Shown piece by piece: positions 3,074 to 54,491 of a stretch of DNA of 64,000 nt. A model generated the notes under the pieces. The model was not told the DNA's origin. It made no database searches and was given only the letters and a program-made list of their open reading frames with translations. This DNA is from Topomyia yanbarensis (lineage: Eukaryota; Arthropoda; Insecta; Diptera; Culicidae), in assembly GCF_030247195.1 (NCBI RefSeq), contig NC_080672.1, positions 367,962,271-368,026,270 of the forward strand. Reading direction: 5' to 3'. A program made the translations under genes and the position numbers. Position 1 is the stretch's first letter. Every line of letters begins with the position of its first letter.

Positions 3074-3250
3074 AAGTGTTTCACACGTAGTTCATCGCAT
3101 TCGTGGCTGGCGAGCCGTTGTGTATGAGGGAAAAGTGTACTAAGAATGTAATAGACATTTTCACAATTATATTGAACATGGCTGGAGTCATAGTTTGGAG
3201 AAATGAGAACGGCACAGTTGCACCATTAGGTGGATTAAAATAGGTTTTTT
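3074..3250 (+). repeat. interspersed repeat, copy A
   Basis: The stretch from the CAAGTGTTTC phrase to the GCACCATTAGGTGGATT phrase recurs in the same order and orientation at 41574-41765 with moderate divergence. It has no open frame of note, and its family is not recognised. Confidence 0.55.
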
Positions 3251-4265: not shown

Positions 4266-4430
4266 TTTATTCGAGGTTTTATTCGTGCAGGAATCGAAAC
4301 AATGAGCATCCCACCTTTAATTAGGTTTTTACTTCGCATGAGTTCTGCATACTAAAGCATGATCCAACAGAGATGTGTAAGAAATATCTCATCTCACTGC
4401 TAAATGGATTAAATCGGTTTTTCGAAACCG
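4266..4430 (+). repeat. interspersed repeat downstream of T-rich array, copy A
   Basis: The sequence starting CGAGGTTTTATTCGTGCAGG is repeated at 8851-8990, in the same orientation and again directly after a T-rich array. The array plus this tail therefore forms one repeated unit. The unit occurs on both sides of the Transib element. Confidence 0.7.
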
Positions 4431-5393
4431 AAACGGAATTTAAAAAAACATGGTTTTCAAAAAGTGTGCTTTCAAGTTTTTAGAAGCAAAAAAAATGAAA
4501 GTAAAGTGAAGTGACGAGAAGACCTTAAGTCCTTTGGTGTCGTTTTTTTTTCTTTTTCGTGGAAAAATTCAAAAAACCGTTACTTTATATGTTTTGAATT
4601 TCTACTAGTTTGAAAAGTTTCAAAAAAAAAAATCGAATCCAAAAGAAGCAAAAAATAAAATAAATTGTCAGCTCGACAGCGGCGCATCATGTATTTTTTG
4701 TTGTGACGTGTAGATTCGTGTGCGCCGCTTAACGATGGTTGATGGAACTGGCGGTCCGAATAGCCCCGTACGCTCACTTCGCGCAAAAGTGGTGAGCGTC
4801 TTTAAAATATCTGTGTTTTCACCCAAACAAAAATCATTTCATAAAATAGGAGCCTTTAGGCTTTCCAAAATACCGACGGTTCCGACAGCATGTAGTAACA
4901 AGTTACTTTACGCTTGTCCGGACATGCCGTAGACTCAGGTGATTCGCATTTCTAATGCCAAAAGACCCTGACTCCTACGGTAGCAGACAAAAGGTTAAGT
5001 CGCCGGTGAGCTCTAAGCTTGCATATATGATCCTTCCACGCTTTTCTAAACTTTCTCCCTTCAACACCTTGCTCTCCCTTGAGTACTATGGCTCTAAATA
5101 TTGAAAAATATACTTCACCTTCCAGTCCCTTGCTAATTAAATGCCGAAAAAACTGTTGATAACAATATAATCGCCAACATAGCCGAGACACCTAACACTC
5201 CCTTCTACTTACCTCAACGCAAAAAAAAATACTTTGAAATATCTACATGTTTCACTCATAAATCGTTTTCTATCTCTCTCTCTCTCTGTGTGTCGCTCTC
5301 TGTTAAGTGGTATAAAAGCACATGTTACTTTATCTCAGTTTACTGTTTCCAAATACGCGTTAAAATACTTGGCCTGAACATTCTATTTTGTAT
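4431..5393. other. unassigned DNA with short CT/GT microsatellite
   Basis: No gene is recognised. A TCTCTCTC/TGTGTG simple repeat sits at about 5271-5292. Frames of 68-79 codons on either strand show no family features. Confidence 0.5.
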
Positions 5394-5398
5394 CGTCG

Positions 5399-6000
5399 CA
5401 CAGTGGTCAAAATGTGTAAATTCATGCCTTTAATTATTTAGCGGAAAAACTATAAGGTTCTGTGTTTTGGTGACTTCGGAAAAGTTGTTGGAGCTACCAA
5501 GGCGGATTTTCGGAAGTAGACAGCCATGTTCCAAAATACAGTGTAAAGACATTTCTGAAATCTAACTATTTACTGGTAGCAGATAGACAGTTTCAGTCTT
5601 CGGCAAAGTTGTAGAGCAAATCTTTCATAAGAACTGACTCTCTAACTATAGCCGTTCCAATGTTATACGGTGTTTTCATGAGGACCCCCTTCAAAATTGG
5701 TTTTTTCATGATAACTCTTGTCGTATTTATTTCTCCACAAATGTGTTCCGAAATGTTTTAGATATTACGAAAATGCACAACTTTGCTGAATATTTCAAGA
5801 CGATATTATGTTTTTGGAGAGAGTTACAGCTTTTTTTATGATTAATATTATCAAATTTCATAGCCAGTTTTTTCAAAAAGTTGCAAAAATATGCAAATAA
5901 AATATTGTTATTTTGAAACTATCATAAATCCCCTACAAAATCCTAAAGGAATGGTTTGTATCCGATAGTGTCCTAAGATGTTATAATCGAATGAAAGTGC
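5399..6000 (+). repeat. Transib left terminal inverted repeat
   Basis: It pairs with 7453-8055 in reverse complement over about 600 bases, with few differences and one- to two-base indels. Homology stops at the GAATGAAA phrase near 5990. Confidence 0.85.
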
Positions 6001-6099
6001 TAGTAATCGGGGCGATCGTATTATGTGTTATCTTGAATATTTAAAAATAAGATAAACATAAACTGCCAAAAATAAGAAGAAGATAAACTGCCGAAAATA

Positions 6100-6970
6100 A
6101 GATAAACATAACTGCCATCAAATCCCCATTGTACGGTCAGTTCGATCCTTAGGAGTTTATCGTCCGAGAAATACTGTAAGTTTTCGCTGTTCGCTTCTAC
6201 TATGCGGTTTGACGTATGATCAAGAAGCTTCTGTAAGTCAACTTCGACAGAAAACACGGTAAAAGTTATGGATGATTCATCGGGTAACATTTTTGTTTCT
6301 CGGCGATAACTTTAGTGTATGATGGGTATATATTAACATTTCGTACTTTTGCACCTTTCTGAAATTTTTTAATAACTCGCTTTCGTAAGATTGTATTCGA
6401 CAATCAAGGATAATGCTTCAGCTCCAGTGCATCGGATTTATTGTGCCTTCTTCCATGGGCGTTGCATTTTAGAAGCCCAAGTGGGAGTTGTTTGCGTTGC
6501 CTCTTTGACAACCAAAGCTGCTGATAAATCCCCTGACTCTCGAAGTTTCATCTGTGTCGCAAAAGCTAACTCATCGGAGGAATGTTTTGATCGCAAGATT
6601 GATGTTTTGCTGCGCTTCACTTTGTCAGTGCTTTCCAAAAAGGACAGAGTTTTTCTTCCTCGACAAGTTTCAATAGGCTCTGTATTTATTCTACTTAAAA
6701 TGTATCCGGGTAGTCTGAACGAACTGTTGAAGTAATCAGTATTGTATTTAAGAACAATAGATTCACTTCGATGATATCTAAGCCATAACTTATTGAAATA
6801 TTTGCAGACATTCGAAGCAATTCTTTCAGTTTCGCTTGCAACATATGGCATATCATCAGGAACTATGCGATAAGCTTTGAAAATTGCCTGGCAGATTTCA
6901 TGTAATTTTTTACTATGATCGCCTTTGGTTTTTTTCCAAAGCTGAAACAGCTGACGTTTACTGATTTCGA
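6100..6970 (-). pseudogene. Transib (RAG1-like) transposase relic, N-terminal and central part
   Basis: The minus strand shows an exon opening just after an intron acceptor (TTTTTTTGTGTAG, ending at 6971). It reads on in one frame to a stop at 6438 and includes the segment SSDELAFATQMKLRESG. Coding-like sequence then continues after a frame change (IYPSY- and KCYP-like pieces near 6300-6360) into the 6290-6100 frame, which holds LRIELTVQWGFDGS. In RAG1-like transposases the GFDGS-type motif corresponds to the region of the first catalytic aspartate; that assignment is from memory of the family. After GFDGS the frame runs into a short tandem duplication of non-coding sequence (6020-6115). The remaining catalytic residues and the zinc-binding C-terminal region are missing. 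There is no start codon in the exon, so the first exon must have lain upstream and is not visible. Non-functional. Confidence 0.7.
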
Positions 6971-7452
6971 CTACACAAAAAAAGAAAATTTATGTTGAAT
7001 AACAAACAGATACATCAGGGTATTTGAAACATTAAGATGTTATATTGAAATGTCTAATTCACAGAACATTAAATAACAGCGACAAATGTACGAGCATAGA
7101 ATAGAAAGAAAACGTCTAATCAATAACAGATAACGAAATTGCCTAAATAAAATGTGGCGTTGCTTTCACAGATTACAATACACTAAACAAATATTCATGG
7201 TAACCATCAGTTTGCACTTACCCGCAATATTTGAATACAGAATTCAAATTAATTACACCGCACCGCGTGATCAGAAAATGTATGTGATTTTTTCAGCATT
7301 TGAAAACTAATTTGATTTATAACTCAGGTTTCTTTGTTTTAAATTTTTTCTTTAATTACGTAACAGATAAACGCTTCTTCAGAATGTTTGTATATTTGTG
7401 TAACGCCTTCCATGAGCACCAAGGAGTGTCGCCGAAAAAACTCATATACTCA

Positions 7453-8055
7453 CAATTTCATTCGATCATAACATCTTAGGATACTATCGGATACAAACCA
7501 TTCCTTCAGGATTTTGTAGAGGATTTATGATAGTTTCAAAATAACAATATTTCATCTGCATATTTTTGCAACTTTTTGAAAAAACTGGCTATGAAATTTG
7601 ATAATATTAATCATAAAAAAAGCTGTAACTCTCTCCGAAAACATAATATCGTCTTGAAATATTCAACAAAGTTGTGCATTTTCGTAATATCTAAAACATT
7701 TCGGAACACATATTTGTGGAGAAATAGATACGACAAGAGTTATCATGAAAAAACCAATTTTGAAGGGGGTCCTCATGAAAACACCGTATAACATTGGAAC
7801 GGCTATAGTTAGAGAGTCAGTTCTTATGAAAGATTTGCTCTACAACTTTGCCGAAGACTGAAACTGTCTATCTGCTACCAGTAAAAAGTTAGATTTCAGA
7901 AATGTCTTTACACTGTATTTTGGAACATGGCTGTCTACTTCTGAAAATCCGCCTTGGTAGCTCCAACAACTTTTCCGAAGTCACCAAAACACAGAACCTT
8001 ATAGTTTTTCCGCTAAATAATTAAAGGCATGAATTTACACATTTTGACCACTGTG
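7453..8055 (-). repeat. Transib right terminal inverted repeat
   Basis: Reverse complement of 5399-6000. It ends GACCACTGTG and is followed directly by the CGTCG target copy. Confidence 0.85.
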
Positions 8056-8060
8056 CGTCG

Positions 8061-33358: not shown

Positions 33359-33958
33359 CTAACCTTTGAAAAGGGTGTATGCACTTTTACGTAAGTTTTT
33401 TTTAACATAACTTTTTTCAAATTTATGCTTAAACTTATATTTTACTTCGTGGGATATGGCCGACTTGTCGCTGGAATAGTAGCTGTCATTTCGTGGAATG
33501 TGGGTCTTCGAGAGCGGAAAGTAACTTTCGTCGGCCAGCACGAACGACGTTTTGCGGTAGTTCTTCGTCATCCACCGACACTTCGATTCCACGATCACTA
33601 TCTGCTCGTCCGTGTACTCGAGGGATCGAATCTTCTTCCGACAGATGATGTCCTCCATCTTGAGGGTTCGGTGAATCAAGGAGCAATGATATTGTCGGCA
33701 GGCATCACGCAAACTCGTTCCGGCCTTGTTGTCGAACAGCTTTTTTAAAGCTTCCTTCTTCTTCTTCTTCTTCTTCGTTATTATCTTCGCCTGATCGGCC
33801 TTCCGCTTCCCGCTCAGGGTTGCCAGAATCCGGTAAACTGTACTCACGGGCACGTTTTCGTCTCGTAAGTGGTCTACCGTAAACTTTTTTCCACGATTAC
33901 CATGCGTTTCGTAAAACCGTACAACACGCTCGCGGAGTACTTGCTGTTTCGACGCCAT
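33359..33958 (-). pseudogene. Tc1/mariner (ITmD37E-type) transposase, truncated
   Basis: The frame is best started at the ATG at 33958 (MASKQQVLRERVVRFYE), although it stays open upstream to 34021. The N-terminal third is a helix-turn-helix region that includes KKFTVDHLRDENVPVSTVYR. A lysine run from a CTT microsatellite (about 33752-33777) interrupts the linker. A second DNA-binding-like segment (SLRDACRQYHCS) follows, then the catalytic-domain start with VLADESYFPLSKTH, where the D of ADESYF is the first catalytic aspartate. After that the frame departs from the family, ending about 70 codons later with basic, low-complexity residues. The second D and the D/E at 37 residues are missing. Intact relatives are about 340 residues; this is about 200. 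The terminal inverted repeats were not found. The ITmD37E label, a mosquito mariner group, is inferred from the ADESYF phrase. Confidence 0.75.
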
Positions 33959-34021
33959 CTTCGATTTAACTGACTGCACCCGAGCGAAAAGAAACATGCC
34001 ACCCATTTCTAGGGAGTCCAT

Positions 34022-35099
34022 AGAGCCATTCTCTTGGAGAAAAAAAAATTACGATGTGCACTTTAATTACAGAGAGGTATTGAAATCCTTCTAATTTTTA
34101 TTGAACACCCGTTACTGACGAAATGACTGGGAGCAGGCTACTTCCCAGCCAGAGGGAAGTTAGTACTGTGACATCCAACATCATTTATGTCTGCTGGATA
34201 CTCTCTGGAAGCTCTTGGATAAATTGAAGGGCGAAAGAAGCCCAGACAGTCATAGAGAGCTAGCAGAAAAAAGGACCCTAAAACAGAAGAAGGAAATCGG
34301 TGCATTTAGCAGTGTTAGCTGGGAGGTTACAGCATCATCATAGCACAATATGCGAGTGTACTAAGCTATTTCAGAATCGAGTGTTCGTCGACGTCACAAA
34401 TTCGGGGCAGAAATCGATGAGTGTCACAGTGGGAGTGTTAAATACTTTGGGACATAATGCATGATGCATAATAGCTCGCATTATAGTCTCAATCGCAACC
34501 ATATCTGCACCGTAATCTTATATTTGAACAAAGTACAAACAAAAATCCTAGTGCACTCGAACCTCTCATTTGTGCCATCCAATGTCACTTTTTCATTTCT
34601 TAATAGTCGGCCGATATTTATATTTTCAATTTCGGTTTCTTACATGGGAATTGCAACGAGAAACTACGTTTTTCGTGAGAATTCGAGCGCGATTATTGCT
34701 ACACCACAATCAGCGCGGCTGTTGGTTACAATTCCCTATTGAGTAGATGAGATCAAATATTTTAAAGTTTTCTGTGAGGACCAGCGAGGAGTTATCAGCA
34801 CAAATACACGTCATTGAAGTAAAGCAGAAACATCAAAGGTCTTAAGTAGCTTCCCTGAGCAATTCATAGCGACATTCAAACAAACAGAAAGAAAGATGAA
34901 TCAATACGGTGAATCTGCCCGACAGACCTATGAGAGTGCCAGATATCCTGCCAAGCGGAGTACAGTTCATTCATATGACACGTACGTTAATAAGTTACGT
35001 ACTTTAACAAACTGGCCAAATTTTGAAAAGAGCCATTTTCCAAAGAATTCTTATTTGGTTTCAGTACTACAACTTCTTGAGCCCTTTGACTCCGTGACC
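34022..35099. other. no recognised gene
   Basis: Mixed unique-looking DNA. Two plus frames (34461-34742, 34896-35111) were read; neither has a domain, and no splice context was found. Confidence 0.35.
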
Positions 35100-39691: not shown

Positions 39692-39778
39692 CTAAAAACG
39701 TCACCCACAAGGAAATCAAGTCAGTCAGTGGTTGGTTTTAATTTTACAGCCAATTTTACGATGTCAACGGTCACCCAC

Positions 39779-39980
39779 CTATATCCAGTGCGATTTCGTT
39801 TCGCGCTGCTACAAAGTCCTCGTAGGAGCTTCGGTTTCCCTCCTCGACGTGCTTACAGTAGGCTAGTGCTAAATCTTGCTTTGGCAGTTGGTAGACCAGT
39901 TGCTTGTCCCGGAACCGTTCACCCTGAGAGCCGATTTTAGGAACTTTTTCCGACGGGATTACATCGAAGTATCGTTGGAT
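39779..39980 (-). CDS. Lmpt: Limpet-like PET-LIM protein, exon encoding most of the PET domain
   Basis: A 202-base exon lies between a CAACAG acceptor and a GTGGGT donor. It enters in phase 0 and leaves in phase 1. It encodes IQRYFDVIPSEKVPKIGSQG and then GERFRDKQLVYQLPKQD, LAYCKHVEE and FVAARNEIALDI. These match the PET domain pattern: an aromatic start helix, a P-x-x-K-VP-x-x-S-x-GE core, a K-QL-x-x-QLP-x-D segment and a C-bearing helix. The PET domain mediates partner binding and intramolecular contacts in PET-LIM proteins. Introns on both sides are short (87 and 59 bases), typical of insects. Base composition is clearly less AT-rich than the surroundings, and silent positions look gene-like. 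Plus-strand frames across it (39608-39940) are shadows. Confidence 0.88.
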
Positions 39981-40039
39981 CTGTTGAGGATGAGAACGAA
40001 TTAATTTGTTTTTATATGCAAAAATATGTTCAAACTTAC

Positions 40040-40211
40040 CTTCGCTGAGGTGAGTATTCCTGGTGGAACCCAGGTGTAACCCATTTGACGTGGATCCACC
40101 CGACTAGTATTGCTGTCATGCTTGAATCCTAAACGCTCACGCACTGAAGTTAACTGTTCATGATAGACAGCATGCGTTTCACGGGGGCATTTGCATTCCT
40201 GGCAGGTTTTC
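40040..40211 (-). CDS. Lmpt: Limpet-like PET-LIM protein, exon with Cys-rich motif and PET start
   Basis: This 172-base exon follows a polypyrimidine tract and a CTCTTTTAG acceptor, and ends at AAG before GTAAGT. The first base completes a codon from an upstream exon that is not in view (phase 2 entry). It then encodes 57 residues: KTCQECKCPRETHAVYHEQL, a linker, and MGYTWVPPGILTSAK. The CxxCxC cluster with PRE-H is the conserved stretch before PET domains of the Testin/Limpet group, and GYTWVPPG is the PET opening. No in-frame start with a credible leader precedes the cluster within the exon; an ATG at about 40265 lies in the intron on splice-site evidence. The next upstream coding exon is beyond what I can identify. 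Confidence 0.85.
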
Positions 40212-51069: not shown

Positions 51070-51081
51070 TGGGCTACTGGG

Positions 51082-54000
51082 ATGCACCGCAGCTTGTATT
51101 ATGGAAGCCCTCCGCCCGCCACAGTCCAGCTACTGCAGCCAACGTTCACCAGTCGTCCCGGTCCTGTGTACGGGAGTGGAGAAAGGGTCTTCCAAACTTC
51201 CCTCTGCGGCAAGTACCCATCCTTTCTGAATAATTCAAGCGCTGAAATGTTCCCCGATTCCAGTTCTCCTTTAATTGCACCGTATCAGCACCAGATGCCG
51301 TTCTTCCTGCCTGCGAATCGCAGCTTACGAGAGACACCTAGTCCAGCTGCATTGCATACATCCCACGTAATGTCGTCTCTTCGGTCACCGGGACGCACAC
51401 TTGCCGCCAGCCGTGAGAAAGCCCTTAGTCCCTCCGCCACAGTCGAGCCCTTCCTGCCAGCGACCAGCAGCCGTCCCGGTCCTGTGGTGGAGATGGGACG
51501 AGGGGTCTTTCGCAAACCTACCTCAGGCAAGTACAATGCATCTGTGAGCTCTTCCTTGCCTCCAAGCTCTTCGATTTCCAGCATTGGTCAACGACGGGCT
51601 AAGCTGCTGCTATACTACCAAAAAGGTGGTGGTATTAATTCAATCGTTGAGCAATACCGTCTTGCAGTCTCCGATAAGAGTTTTGACATCATGGTCTTCG
51701 TCGAAACATGGTTGAACGATGACACGCTTTCCAGTCAGGTGTTCGGTACTGAATACGAGGTGTTTCGCTGTGACAGGAGCCCTAGCAACAGCCGAAAATC
51801 CACCGGAGGCGGCGTATTAGTAGCGGTTAAAACCAGCTTGAAGGCAAGAATCGTCGAGAACACTTCTTGGGTTTGTTTAGAGCAGGTTTGGACAATTATC
51901 GAGCTTGGCGACCGTAAGTTGTACTTGTGTGCTTTGTATGTTCCACCCGACCGCGCTCGTGATACCGGATACGTTGAAGCACACTGCAGCTCAGTTTTTA
52001 CTATCCTCGAAGATGCTAACGCTATTGATGAGATCATGGTACTAGGAGATTTTAATCTTCCTAGCATTTCATGGAAATCTTCCCCTAATGGATTTCTTTA
52101 TCCGGATTCGGACCATTCCGTTCTCAACCCATGTGCAGTGAGGCTACTTGATAGCTATAGCTCAGCCACGTTACTACAAATCAATCTTATTGCCAATGAG
52201 AATAGCCGCCATCTCGATCTTTGTTTTGTCAGCGATCAGGTTTCCGCCACATCAATAGTGACGGCTCCCTCTCCCCTAGTAAAACCAGTGGCACATCATC
52301 CTCCACTGATCGCCACGATTGATAGCTCTGTGGTGCATGACTTCGACATATTACCGCTTTCTGTCTCCTACAATTTCCGTAAAGGTGATCATCGCAGTAT
52401 CGCAGACCTTCTTTCCACCATCGATTGGGAAAATATTCTGGACCCTGAAGATGTCGAAACCGCAGTTCAAACCTTTTCAAACGTTCTGGTGTACGCTATT
52501 GACAGGCACGTTCCAAAGAAAGTTCACCATCGACAAACCGGCCCTCCATGGCAAACGAGTACACGGCTGTGACGGCTTGAAGTCTATAAAGAGAGCTGCC
52601 CTGCGGAGGTTTACCAAGTACCGCATAATATCACTCAGAGACTATTACGTCAGTCTCAACCATGCGTACAAACGAGCAAGTCAACACTGTTTCTATCGAT
52701 ATCAGCAAAATATTCATATTAATCTCAAGTCGCATCCCAAACGTTTCTGGAAATATGTGAACGAGCAGCGCAAGGAATCAGGACTGCCGTCGTCTATGAC
52801 TTTCAATGGGAACACAGCTACTGCATCTCGAGAGATATGTGCACTTTTCTCGGAAAAATTCGCGAGTGTATTCACAGATGAGGCACTAACTATTGAGCAA
52901 ATCGAACTCGCTGCTAGCAGAACTCCACTTGTAGGCCAAGCTTTGGGTGCTATCGATGTCGATGCAGCGATGATTACCAGAGCTTCCTCTCGGCTTAAGT
53001 CATTTTTCAATCCGGGACCCGACGGGTTCCCCTCCGTTATCCTGAAAAGGCACATTGAAGCTTTGATTACTCCGCTTCTTCATATTTTTCGAACATCTAT
53101 TGTTAGAGGAGTTTTCCCGTCTTGCTGGAAATACGCGAACATGTTCCCAGTCCACAAGAAGGGTAATAAGCGAGACGTCAATAATTACCGTGGAATAACT
53201 TCATTGAGTGCAGTTTTAAAGTTGTTCGAGCTGATGATTATGGAACCTCTACAGGCTCATTGTAAGCAGTACCTAAGTAACGATCAACACGGCTTCACGT
53301 CCGGGCGGTCAACAGCCTCTAACCTGCTGTGTTTAACATCCTATATAACAGAGAGTATGGAGCATCGTGCTCAAACCGACGTTGTTTACACCGACTTATC
53401 TGCCGCTTTCGATAAGATAAATCACGACATCGCAAAAATGGAGAGATTTGGAATAAATGGTAGTGTTTTGCGGTTGTTTCGATCCTACCTCACAGACCGA
53501 GAGATAGCGGTTGTCATAGGAGATTGTCAGGCCCCCACGTTCATTTCTACGTCAGGAATTCCTCAAGGAAGCCACTTGGAACCGTTGATGTTTCTGCTAT
53601 ATTTCAATGATGTACATCTAGTTCTGAAGACTCCACGATTGTCCCTCGTAGAAGACCTCAAGATATTCCGTCTAATTCGGTCAATTGACGACTGCAGATT
53701 TCTCCAACAGCAGCTTGATGTCTTTGCTGATTAGTGTAACACGAACCGCATGTGCGTGAGCCCGAAGAAGTGTTCGGTAATATCGTTTTCACGGAAAAAA
53801 GGATTCGATTCATTTTAACTACCGTCTACTAGAAACAGACATTGAACGCGTCAGTCACGTTAAAGATCTGGGAGTGATTCTGGATCCTCAACTTACGTTT
53901 AAACAGCACGTCTCCTATGCAGTTGGTAAAGCATCTCGAGCACTGGGATGCATCTTCAGAATAGCCAAAAATTTTACGGATATCTATTGTCTCAAATCGC

Positions 54001-54491
54001 TCTACTGTGCTTTATCGCGATCAATTCTAGAATATTGCTCTGAAGTTTGGAGTCCAAACTACAATAATGGCGTTGAGAGAATAGAGTCCGTTCAGCGTCG
54101 CTTTTTACGTTTCGCGCTTCGTAGATTGCCGTGAAGAGATCCTTCCCGACTACCTCGCTATGAAAACCGGTATCAGCTAATTAAACTAGAGCCCCTACAT
54201 GTTCGGATGAATACTGCAAGAGCCTTGTTCATCGCTGACACTCTGCAAGGTCGTATACATGCCCCAGCTATTCTGGAACAAATCAACATAAACGTCGCTC
54301 CTCGAACACTACGCGACAACATTATGTTCAGATTACCATTCCGACGCACTAACTATAGTATGTATGGAGCCGTCACTGGTCTGCAACGAATTTTTAACCA
54401 GGCAGCTACTGCATTTGATTTCAACATTTTTCGACAAAATCTGCGCATACGTTTTTCCAGACTATTTAATCAATTAGCTAACAACACTTGA
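51082..54491 (+). pseudogene. CR1 ORF2 (endonuclease and reverse transcriptase), inactivated
   Basis: A proline/serine-rich leader (51082-51590) carries two SRPGPV ... GKY repeats. An apurinic-type endonuclease follows: ETWLNDD near 51710, LGDFNLPS at 52040-52065 and a HHPPL C-terminal motif at 52300. The usual catalytic asparagine of the opening YQN motif is lysine (YQKGGG, AAA at 51622-51624). A frameshift near 52560-52590 separates it from the reverse transcriptase (52590-53734). That holds GPDGFPS, VHKKGNKRDVNNYRGI, DLSAAFDKINHD and GIPQGSHLEPL. The catalytic YADD is changed to LVED (53645-53656), so the first catalytic aspartate is lost. A stop replaces tryptophan at 53732, a second frameshift lies at 53790-53870, and a third break (TGA for TGG) at 54132. 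The C-terminal tail runs to 54491. Confidence 0.85.

What the first reader, a model, noticed from the sequence alone, without database searches (positions are those of the whole stretch)
5394..8060. Transib element whose ends carry the V(D)J recombination-signal heptamer
Seen: inverted ends start CACAGTG, the target copy is CGTCG on both sides, and the core has a minus-strand relic with LTVQWGFDGS. Known: Transib elements are the transposon relatives of RAG1 and share CACWRTG ends and 5-bp duplications. Inference: this is a young enough Transib that its duplication is exact although its transposase is broken, so an active helper may have existed recently.
Basis: partly seen in the sequence, partly recalled or inferred. 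Interest (0 to 1): 0.8.

Follow-up and report, generated by a model that had tools for sequence, protein, structure and literature searches.

The report
Internally deleted Transib transposon copy
This is a disabled copy of an ordinary insect jumping gene of the Transib kind (distant relatives of the enzyme that shuffles our antibody genes), one of many deleted copies in this genome, and mostly of routine interest.

Summary
Window 5399-8055 is a 2,657-bp element with ~600-bp inverted arms (11 mismatches in 598 compared bases), CACAGTG at both ends and a CGTCG duplication. Its genome holds 67 exact copies of the terminal 25-mer (reversed control 0). Of 29 two-ended copies, 24 have an exact 5-bp duplication (0.5 expected). 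Full-length relatives encode a transposase matching solved Transib (6pqn, E=2.2e-114), so Transib is confirmed. The window copy belongs to a non-autonomous lineage: 18 of 29 copies share one internal deletion, which removes the second and third catalytic acids. 'Young because the duplication is exact' is not supported: the copy ranks third of 24 in private substitutions. Six full-length family copies examined are all interrupted; a different Transib family with the same first ten end bases has an open 718-aa frame. Less usual: the two arms of one copy resemble each other more than arms of other copies (0 of 20,000 permutations), which suggests arm-to-arm copying. Verdict: new member of a known kind.

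The parts
5394..5398 (.). left target-site duplication CGTCG
5399..5996 (+). left inverted arm (the 3' arm in transposase orientation), starts CACAGTGGTC
5597..5614 (-). subterminal motif CTACAACTTTGCCGAAGA (read on minus); a variant of its core lies at 5475-5488
6043..6117 (.). three 25-bp tandem units; 6064-6111 is filler at the internal deletion junction
6111..6140 (-). LTVQWGFDGS, last stretch of transposase before the internal deletion; holds the first catalytic Asp
6111..6970 (-). broken N-terminal part of the Transib transposase; matches residues 1-267 of the 607-aa L011 frame at 84% identity with 4 TAA stops
6971..7221 (-). probable intron (GTAAGT ... TTTTTTTGTGTAG), inferred from sequence only
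7222..7240 (-). probable short first exon; begins CTG here where copy L019 has ATG (inferred)
7456..8055 (-). right inverted arm (the 5' arm in transposase orientation), starts CACAGTGGTC on the minus strand
7840..7857 (+). subterminal motif CTACAACTTTGCCGAAGA; a variant of its core lies at 7966-7979
8056..8060 (.). right target-site duplication CGTCG

Best explanation
A non-autonomous, internally deleted copy of a long-armed Transib cut-and-paste transposon. Shown: the ends, the 5-bp duplication, the family copies, and a shared internal deletion that removes the catalytic core beyond the first aspartate. Inferred: a transposase made elsewhere bound both ends at the CACAGTG heptamer, cut the element out and joined it to a target of the form C(A/G)N(T/C)G with a 5-bp stagger. 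The deletion most likely arose once, for instance by interrupted gap repair in a full-length copy, and the deleted form was then multiplied in trans.
For: The transposase of full-length copy L011 matches HzTransib 6pqn at E=2.2e-114 and RAG1 chains weakly. The three acids that align with the catalytic ones lie at 264, 370 and 580 of its 607-aa frame (identity of the acids recalled), and the window match ends at 267. 24 of 29 two-ended copies have exact 5-bp duplications, with none at 4 or 6-9 bp. The junction (L017 position 1965 joined to 3182-3184) occurs in 18 of 29 copies, whose flanks differ from one another, so these are separate insertions. Four copies run end to end at 3,834-3,859 bp.
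Against: No helper of this family with a complete frame was found, so trans-mobilisation is inferred. 18 of the 47 loci with an exact terminal 25-mer had no second end, or an altered one (L030), in the stretch fetched and are outside the duplication count. Five of the 29 lack an exact duplication. Taken alone, the window pieces give only E=0.2 to 6pqn or no Transib match, and no Pfam transposase.
Confidence: 0.95

Rival explanations
1. On the helper: the element was mobilised recently by its own family's transposase.
For: Full-length copies L011, L019 and L027 differ from L017 by 2-3%, and L011 keeps an open 607-aa frame. An intact copy could be missed: the search scored 72 of 1,362 candidates.
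Against: All six full-length copies examined (L011, L017, L019, L027, L030, L050) are interrupted or cut short. The window copy has 1.8% private substitutions, third highest of 24.
Confidence: 0.3
2. On the helper: a different Transib family (L057 type) moved the deleted copies through the shared ends.
For: L057 has the same first ten end bases CACAGTGGTC, ~657-bp arms, CGTTG on both sides and an open 718-aa Transib frame. In one search, 11 places of other families match over at least 522 residues at 40-43% identity with no stop inside the match.
Against: After base 10 the two families' ends differ, and transposases usually read beyond the heptamer (recalled). No functional data. Only L057 of the 11 was checked as a stop-free frame.
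Confidence: 0.15
3. A hAT or other superfamily element that resembles Transib by chance.
For: The window relic alone gives no Pfam transposase match.
Against: HzTransib match at 2.2e-114 for a full-length copy, and 5-bp rather than 8-bp duplications.
Confidence: 0.01

Closest known systems
Hztransib (Helicoverpa zea; PMC1852546, passages seen; structures 6pqn and others)
   Same: Transposase homology over residues 162-606 of the L011 frame; 5-bp duplication; described there as 3,518 bp with 'long TIRs'
   Different: Different host and family; arm length of Hztransib not given in the passages seen; the window copy is internally deleted
Drosophila hopper and transib2 (PMC3276498, passages seen)
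   Same: 5-bp duplication; target motif there CCANTGG, close to C-C(A/G)N(T/C)G here
   Different: Arms and protein not compared here
L057-type Transib family of the same genome
   Same: First ten end bases, ~657-bp arms, 5-bp duplication, Transib transposase
   Different: 41% protein identity to L011; open 718-aa frame; ends differ after base 10
RAG1 / V(D)J recombination signals
   Same: CACAGTG heptamer; weak homology of the full-length copies to RAG1
   Different: No nonamer at 12 or 23 bp (at most 3 of 9 matches), although some mosquito and fly Transibs are reported to have 12/23 spacing (PMC8355894, passages seen). RAG2 was not searched for

Membership tests
Transib superfamily | Transposase homologous to Transib/RAG1 core | tested here: met
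   Full-length copy L011 against 6pqn, E=2.2e-114; window copy through 84% identity to L011 residues 1-267
Transib superfamily | Ends begin CACWRTG (motif recalled; PMC4411706 passages say the 7-bp termini resemble the RSS) | tested here: met
   CACAGTG at both window ends. Of ten second ends not chosen by the exact pattern, 6 of 10 keep CACAGTG
Transib superfamily | 5-bp target-site duplication | tested here: met
   24 of 29 exact, 0.5 expected; 0 exact at 4, 6, 7, 8, 9 bp. With L030 counted in, 24 of 30
Transib superfamily | Three catalytic acids (positions recalled from RAG1/Transib) | tested here: met
   Present in the full-length copy L011 by alignment; second and third are deleted from the window copy
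Transib superfamily | Short arms (not a firm criterion: a 13-bp TIR is called analogous to known Transibs in PMC4411706, passage) | tested here: inconclusive
   Arms here are ~600-613 bp, unlike 13 bp; but Hztransib is described with long TIRs, so arm length does not define the family
Transib superfamily | Excision with flank hairpins and transposition | not testable with these tools
   Needs biochemistry
V(D)J recombination signal (12/23-RSS) | Nonamer at 12- or 23-bp spacing | tested here: not met
   At spacings 11-13 and 22-24, at most 3 of 9 matches to ACAAAAACC (recalled) in the window ends. L057's ends reach 6 of 9 at 11-12

The most novel reading that the evidence does not exclude
The long arms of this Transib are repeatedly copied onto each other, probably during gap repair after excision. 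This keeps both ends alike, lengthens the arms in some copies (L010, L012, L052) and gives rise to the deleted, parasitic copies.
Probability: 0.5. Interest if true: 0.35.

Novelty: new member of a known kind. Interest (0 to 1): 0.2.

Why it matters
It adds a well-bounded Transib family with ~613-bp arms, four end-to-end copies and a large deleted lineage, beside a related family with an open frame. That is a natural set for asking which end sequences a Transib transposase reads, and whether long arms are kept alike by conversion.

Tried and rejected
Pfam on the window pieces gave no transposase and PDB matches were weak or absent; the full-length copies settled the class. A RAG nonamer at either RSS spacing was looked for and not found. 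A hAT origin was rejected. That an exact duplication proves youth was rejected. Arm length as a novelty was dropped, because Hztransib is already described with long TIRs. A first body tree left out the window copy and misplaced L050 through my choice of pieces; one search replaces it, and no number's tree is used. Arm comparisons used 20 of 29 two-ended copies; L009, L015, L016, L020, L021, L022, L026, L029 and L036 were dropped before counting for short or broken arms. L030 was left out of the 29 because its right terminus is altered; counted in, duplications are 24 exact of 30. L050's left end has two extra bases and would give CGCCG on both sides if shifted; it is counted as not exact. L050 and L051 share their outer flank and lie 40 kb apart, so they look like one insertion duplicated; only L050 is in the 29. 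The host was not identified; size (1.168 Gb, contigs of 218, 470 and 429 Mb) and the nearest named mosquito protein (P0056, Ochlerotatus camptorhynchus, 67% over 53% of the query) suggest an aedine mosquito, an inference only.

Full report
What is there. Window 5399-8055 (2,657 bp) is bounded by CACAGTGGTCAAAATGTG at both ends in inverted orientation and by CGTCG on both sides. The arms are ~600 bp with 11 mismatches in 598 compared bases and 2 gap columns. LTVQWGFDGS is encoded at 6111-6140, minus strand.

More than chance. With up to 3 mismatches the terminal 25-mer matches only these two ends in the window, with a mean of 0.00 in 100 shuffles. In the window's genome it has 67 exact matches (37 plus, 30 minus) against 0 for the reversed pattern. 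These lie at 47 loci: 20 facing pairs, the window's included, and 27 places with one exact end. I fetched the other 46. Nine of the 27 gave an acceptable second end, for 29 two-ended copies; L030 was left out for an altered terminus, and 17 more showed no second end in the stretch fetched.

Duplications. Of 29 copies, 24 have an exact 5-bp duplication. Exact matches at other lengths are 0 at 4, 6, 7, 8 and 9 bp, 1 at 3 bp and 3 at 2 bp; pairing flanks of different copies gives 0.5 expected at 5 bp. The five inexact ones are L011, L019 and L042 (one mismatch each), L017 (two) and L050 (two extra bases at one end). Among the 24, the 5-mer has C first in 19, A or G second in 22 and G last in 21; the base before it is C in 16. 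This resembles CCANTGG reported for Drosophila hopper and transib2 (PMC3276498, passages seen).

Class. Four copies run end to end at 3,834-3,859 bp (L011, L017, L019, L027). The open 607-aa frame of L011 matches the Helicoverpa zea Transib transposase (6pqn) at E=2.2e-114 over residues 162-606; RAG1 and RAG1-like chains match weakly, at 0.0012 and above. Pfam RAG1 is hit at 1.1e-4, 21 bits, under its 25-bit cut-off. In the protein search 610 proteins match at E<=0.001; 120 are listed, most without a name, and the listed names that give an organism give insects. The class is therefore Transib.

Structure of the window copy. It matches L011 residues 1-267 at 84% with four TAA stops and then joins sequence just inside the other arm. 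The three acids that align with the catalytic ones lie at 264, 370 and 580 of L011, so the window copy keeps only the first. The junction (L017 position 1965 joined to 3182-3184) is shared by 18 of 29 copies: by sequence in 16, and by alignment also in L018 and L040. Their flanks differ, so they are separate insertions. Five of 29 span the region (L011, L017, L019, L027, L050), and six have other deletions. Copies with one 25-bp unit at the junction (L013, L024 and others) and copies with extra units (window, L014, L023 and others) suggest one deletion followed by a tandem expansion (inference). A short first exon and a ~250-bp intron are suggested by GTAAGT and a TTTTTTTGTGTAG acceptor; the window has CTG where L019 has ATG (inferred from sequence only).

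Age. On 1,321 sites in 24 copies (5 of the 29 had too little of the region), the window copy has 24 private substitutions in 1,313 sites (1.8%), third highest after L018 and L040, and differs from the others by 3.7-5.3%. With insect rates of the order of 0.01-0.02 per site per million years (recalled), this would be about one to two million years, very roughly. Exact duplications survive in most copies, so they do not date it.

Helper. Six full-length or nearly full-length family copies (L011, L017, L019, L027, L030, L050) were examined and all are interrupted. L011's frame opens only after a stop and ends about 55 residues before the end seen in others. A partial match at C3:278959813 has no stops over residues 189-606 and was not fetched. 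The search scored 72 of 1,362 candidates, so an intact copy may have been missed. Other Transib families are present at 29-60% identity per match. Eleven of these places match over at least 522 residues with no stop inside the match. One of them, fetched as L057, has ~657-bp arms at 98.2% identity, ends CACAGTGGTCCCAAATTGAAAAA, CGTTG on both sides and a stop-free 718-aa frame matching 6pqn at 1.6e-119; the other ten were not fetched. A loose end pattern finds 90 ends of CACAGTGGTC type, L057's two included, against 0 for the reversed pattern. Whether such a transposase reads the window family's ends is untested.

Heptamer and RSS. CACAGTG equals the V(D)J heptamer, but no nonamer sits at spacing 11-13 or 22-24 (at most 3 of 9 matches); the best match anywhere in the first 60 bases is 6 of 9 at spacing 37. 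Some other Transibs, including mosquito ones, are reported with 12/23 spacing (PMC8355894, passages seen). The ends here are Transib ends, not complete recombination signals.

Arms. In 20 of 29 copies with usable arms, the two arms of one copy differ by 3.0% on average, against 4.3% (5'-5'), 3.9% (3'-3') and 4.1% (5'-3') between copies; no column separates 5' from 3' arms at a 70% majority. Random pairing never reached 3.0% in 20,000 permutations (lowest 3.5%). Alleles found only in the two arms of one copy number 16, against a mean of 0.64 and a maximum of 4 in 500 derangements. Against this: an arm's nearest relative is its own partner in only 12 of 40 cases, and alleles shared by just two arms also occur 17 times on the same side of different copies and 12 times across sides. 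Homogenisation is therefore partial. In L010, L012 and L052 the alike region extends to ~655-772 bp. Copying of one arm onto the other, for instance in gap repair, is the simplest reading; it is inferred. Long-armed Galileo and Foldback elements are proposed or known to provoke breaks and rearrangements (PMC2775673, passages seen).

Novelty. A Transib with 'long TIRs' is already described (PMC1852546, passages seen), as are 5-bp duplications and RSS-like termini (PMC4411706, passages seen). Listings for Transib with Aedes (30 of 39 papers listed), with 'long TIR' (10 of 13) and with mosquito terms (10 of 63) showed no title or abstract start on this family; two of those papers, seen in passages, each mention Transib once, without this family. 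Repbase-type libraries were not available. This is a new member of a known kind.

Noticed in passing
window 5597-5614 and 7840-7857; genome-wide; L059-L066: The motif CTACAACTTTGCCGAAGA has 679 exact matches in the genome against 0 for the reversed control. Of the 100 places listed, at least 9 lie in loci of this family. Eight other places sampled fall into three repeat groups with little similarity to this family beyond the motif region; some carry it in both orientations. A paper search for the string found 0. Possibly a shared binding site or a shared ancient end.
   Followed up: partly
L067:977-2082: A 1.1-kb palindrome (86% self-complementary) carrying the motif twice, once per arm.
   Followed up: no
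window 51070-54491 (+): Broken LINE-type retroelement: a reverse-transcriptase frame (PF00078, E=2.2e-16) and an endonuclease-like frame below the Pfam cut-offs.
   Followed up: no
window 39771-40103 (-): PET domain exon (PF06297, E=3e-25), probably of a cellular gene.
   Followed up: no
window 33359-34048 (-): Frame that looks by eye like a mariner/Tc1-type transposase relic; no Pfam match at 0.001.
   Followed up: no
L056:831-1512 and 4346-6545: Near C3:221.29 Mb a 2.2-kb stretch is self-complementary at 99.7% and a 682-bp stretch is repeated inverted at 100%; one search lists five Transib matches of nearly the same score between C3:221.19 and 221.30 Mb.
   Followed up: no
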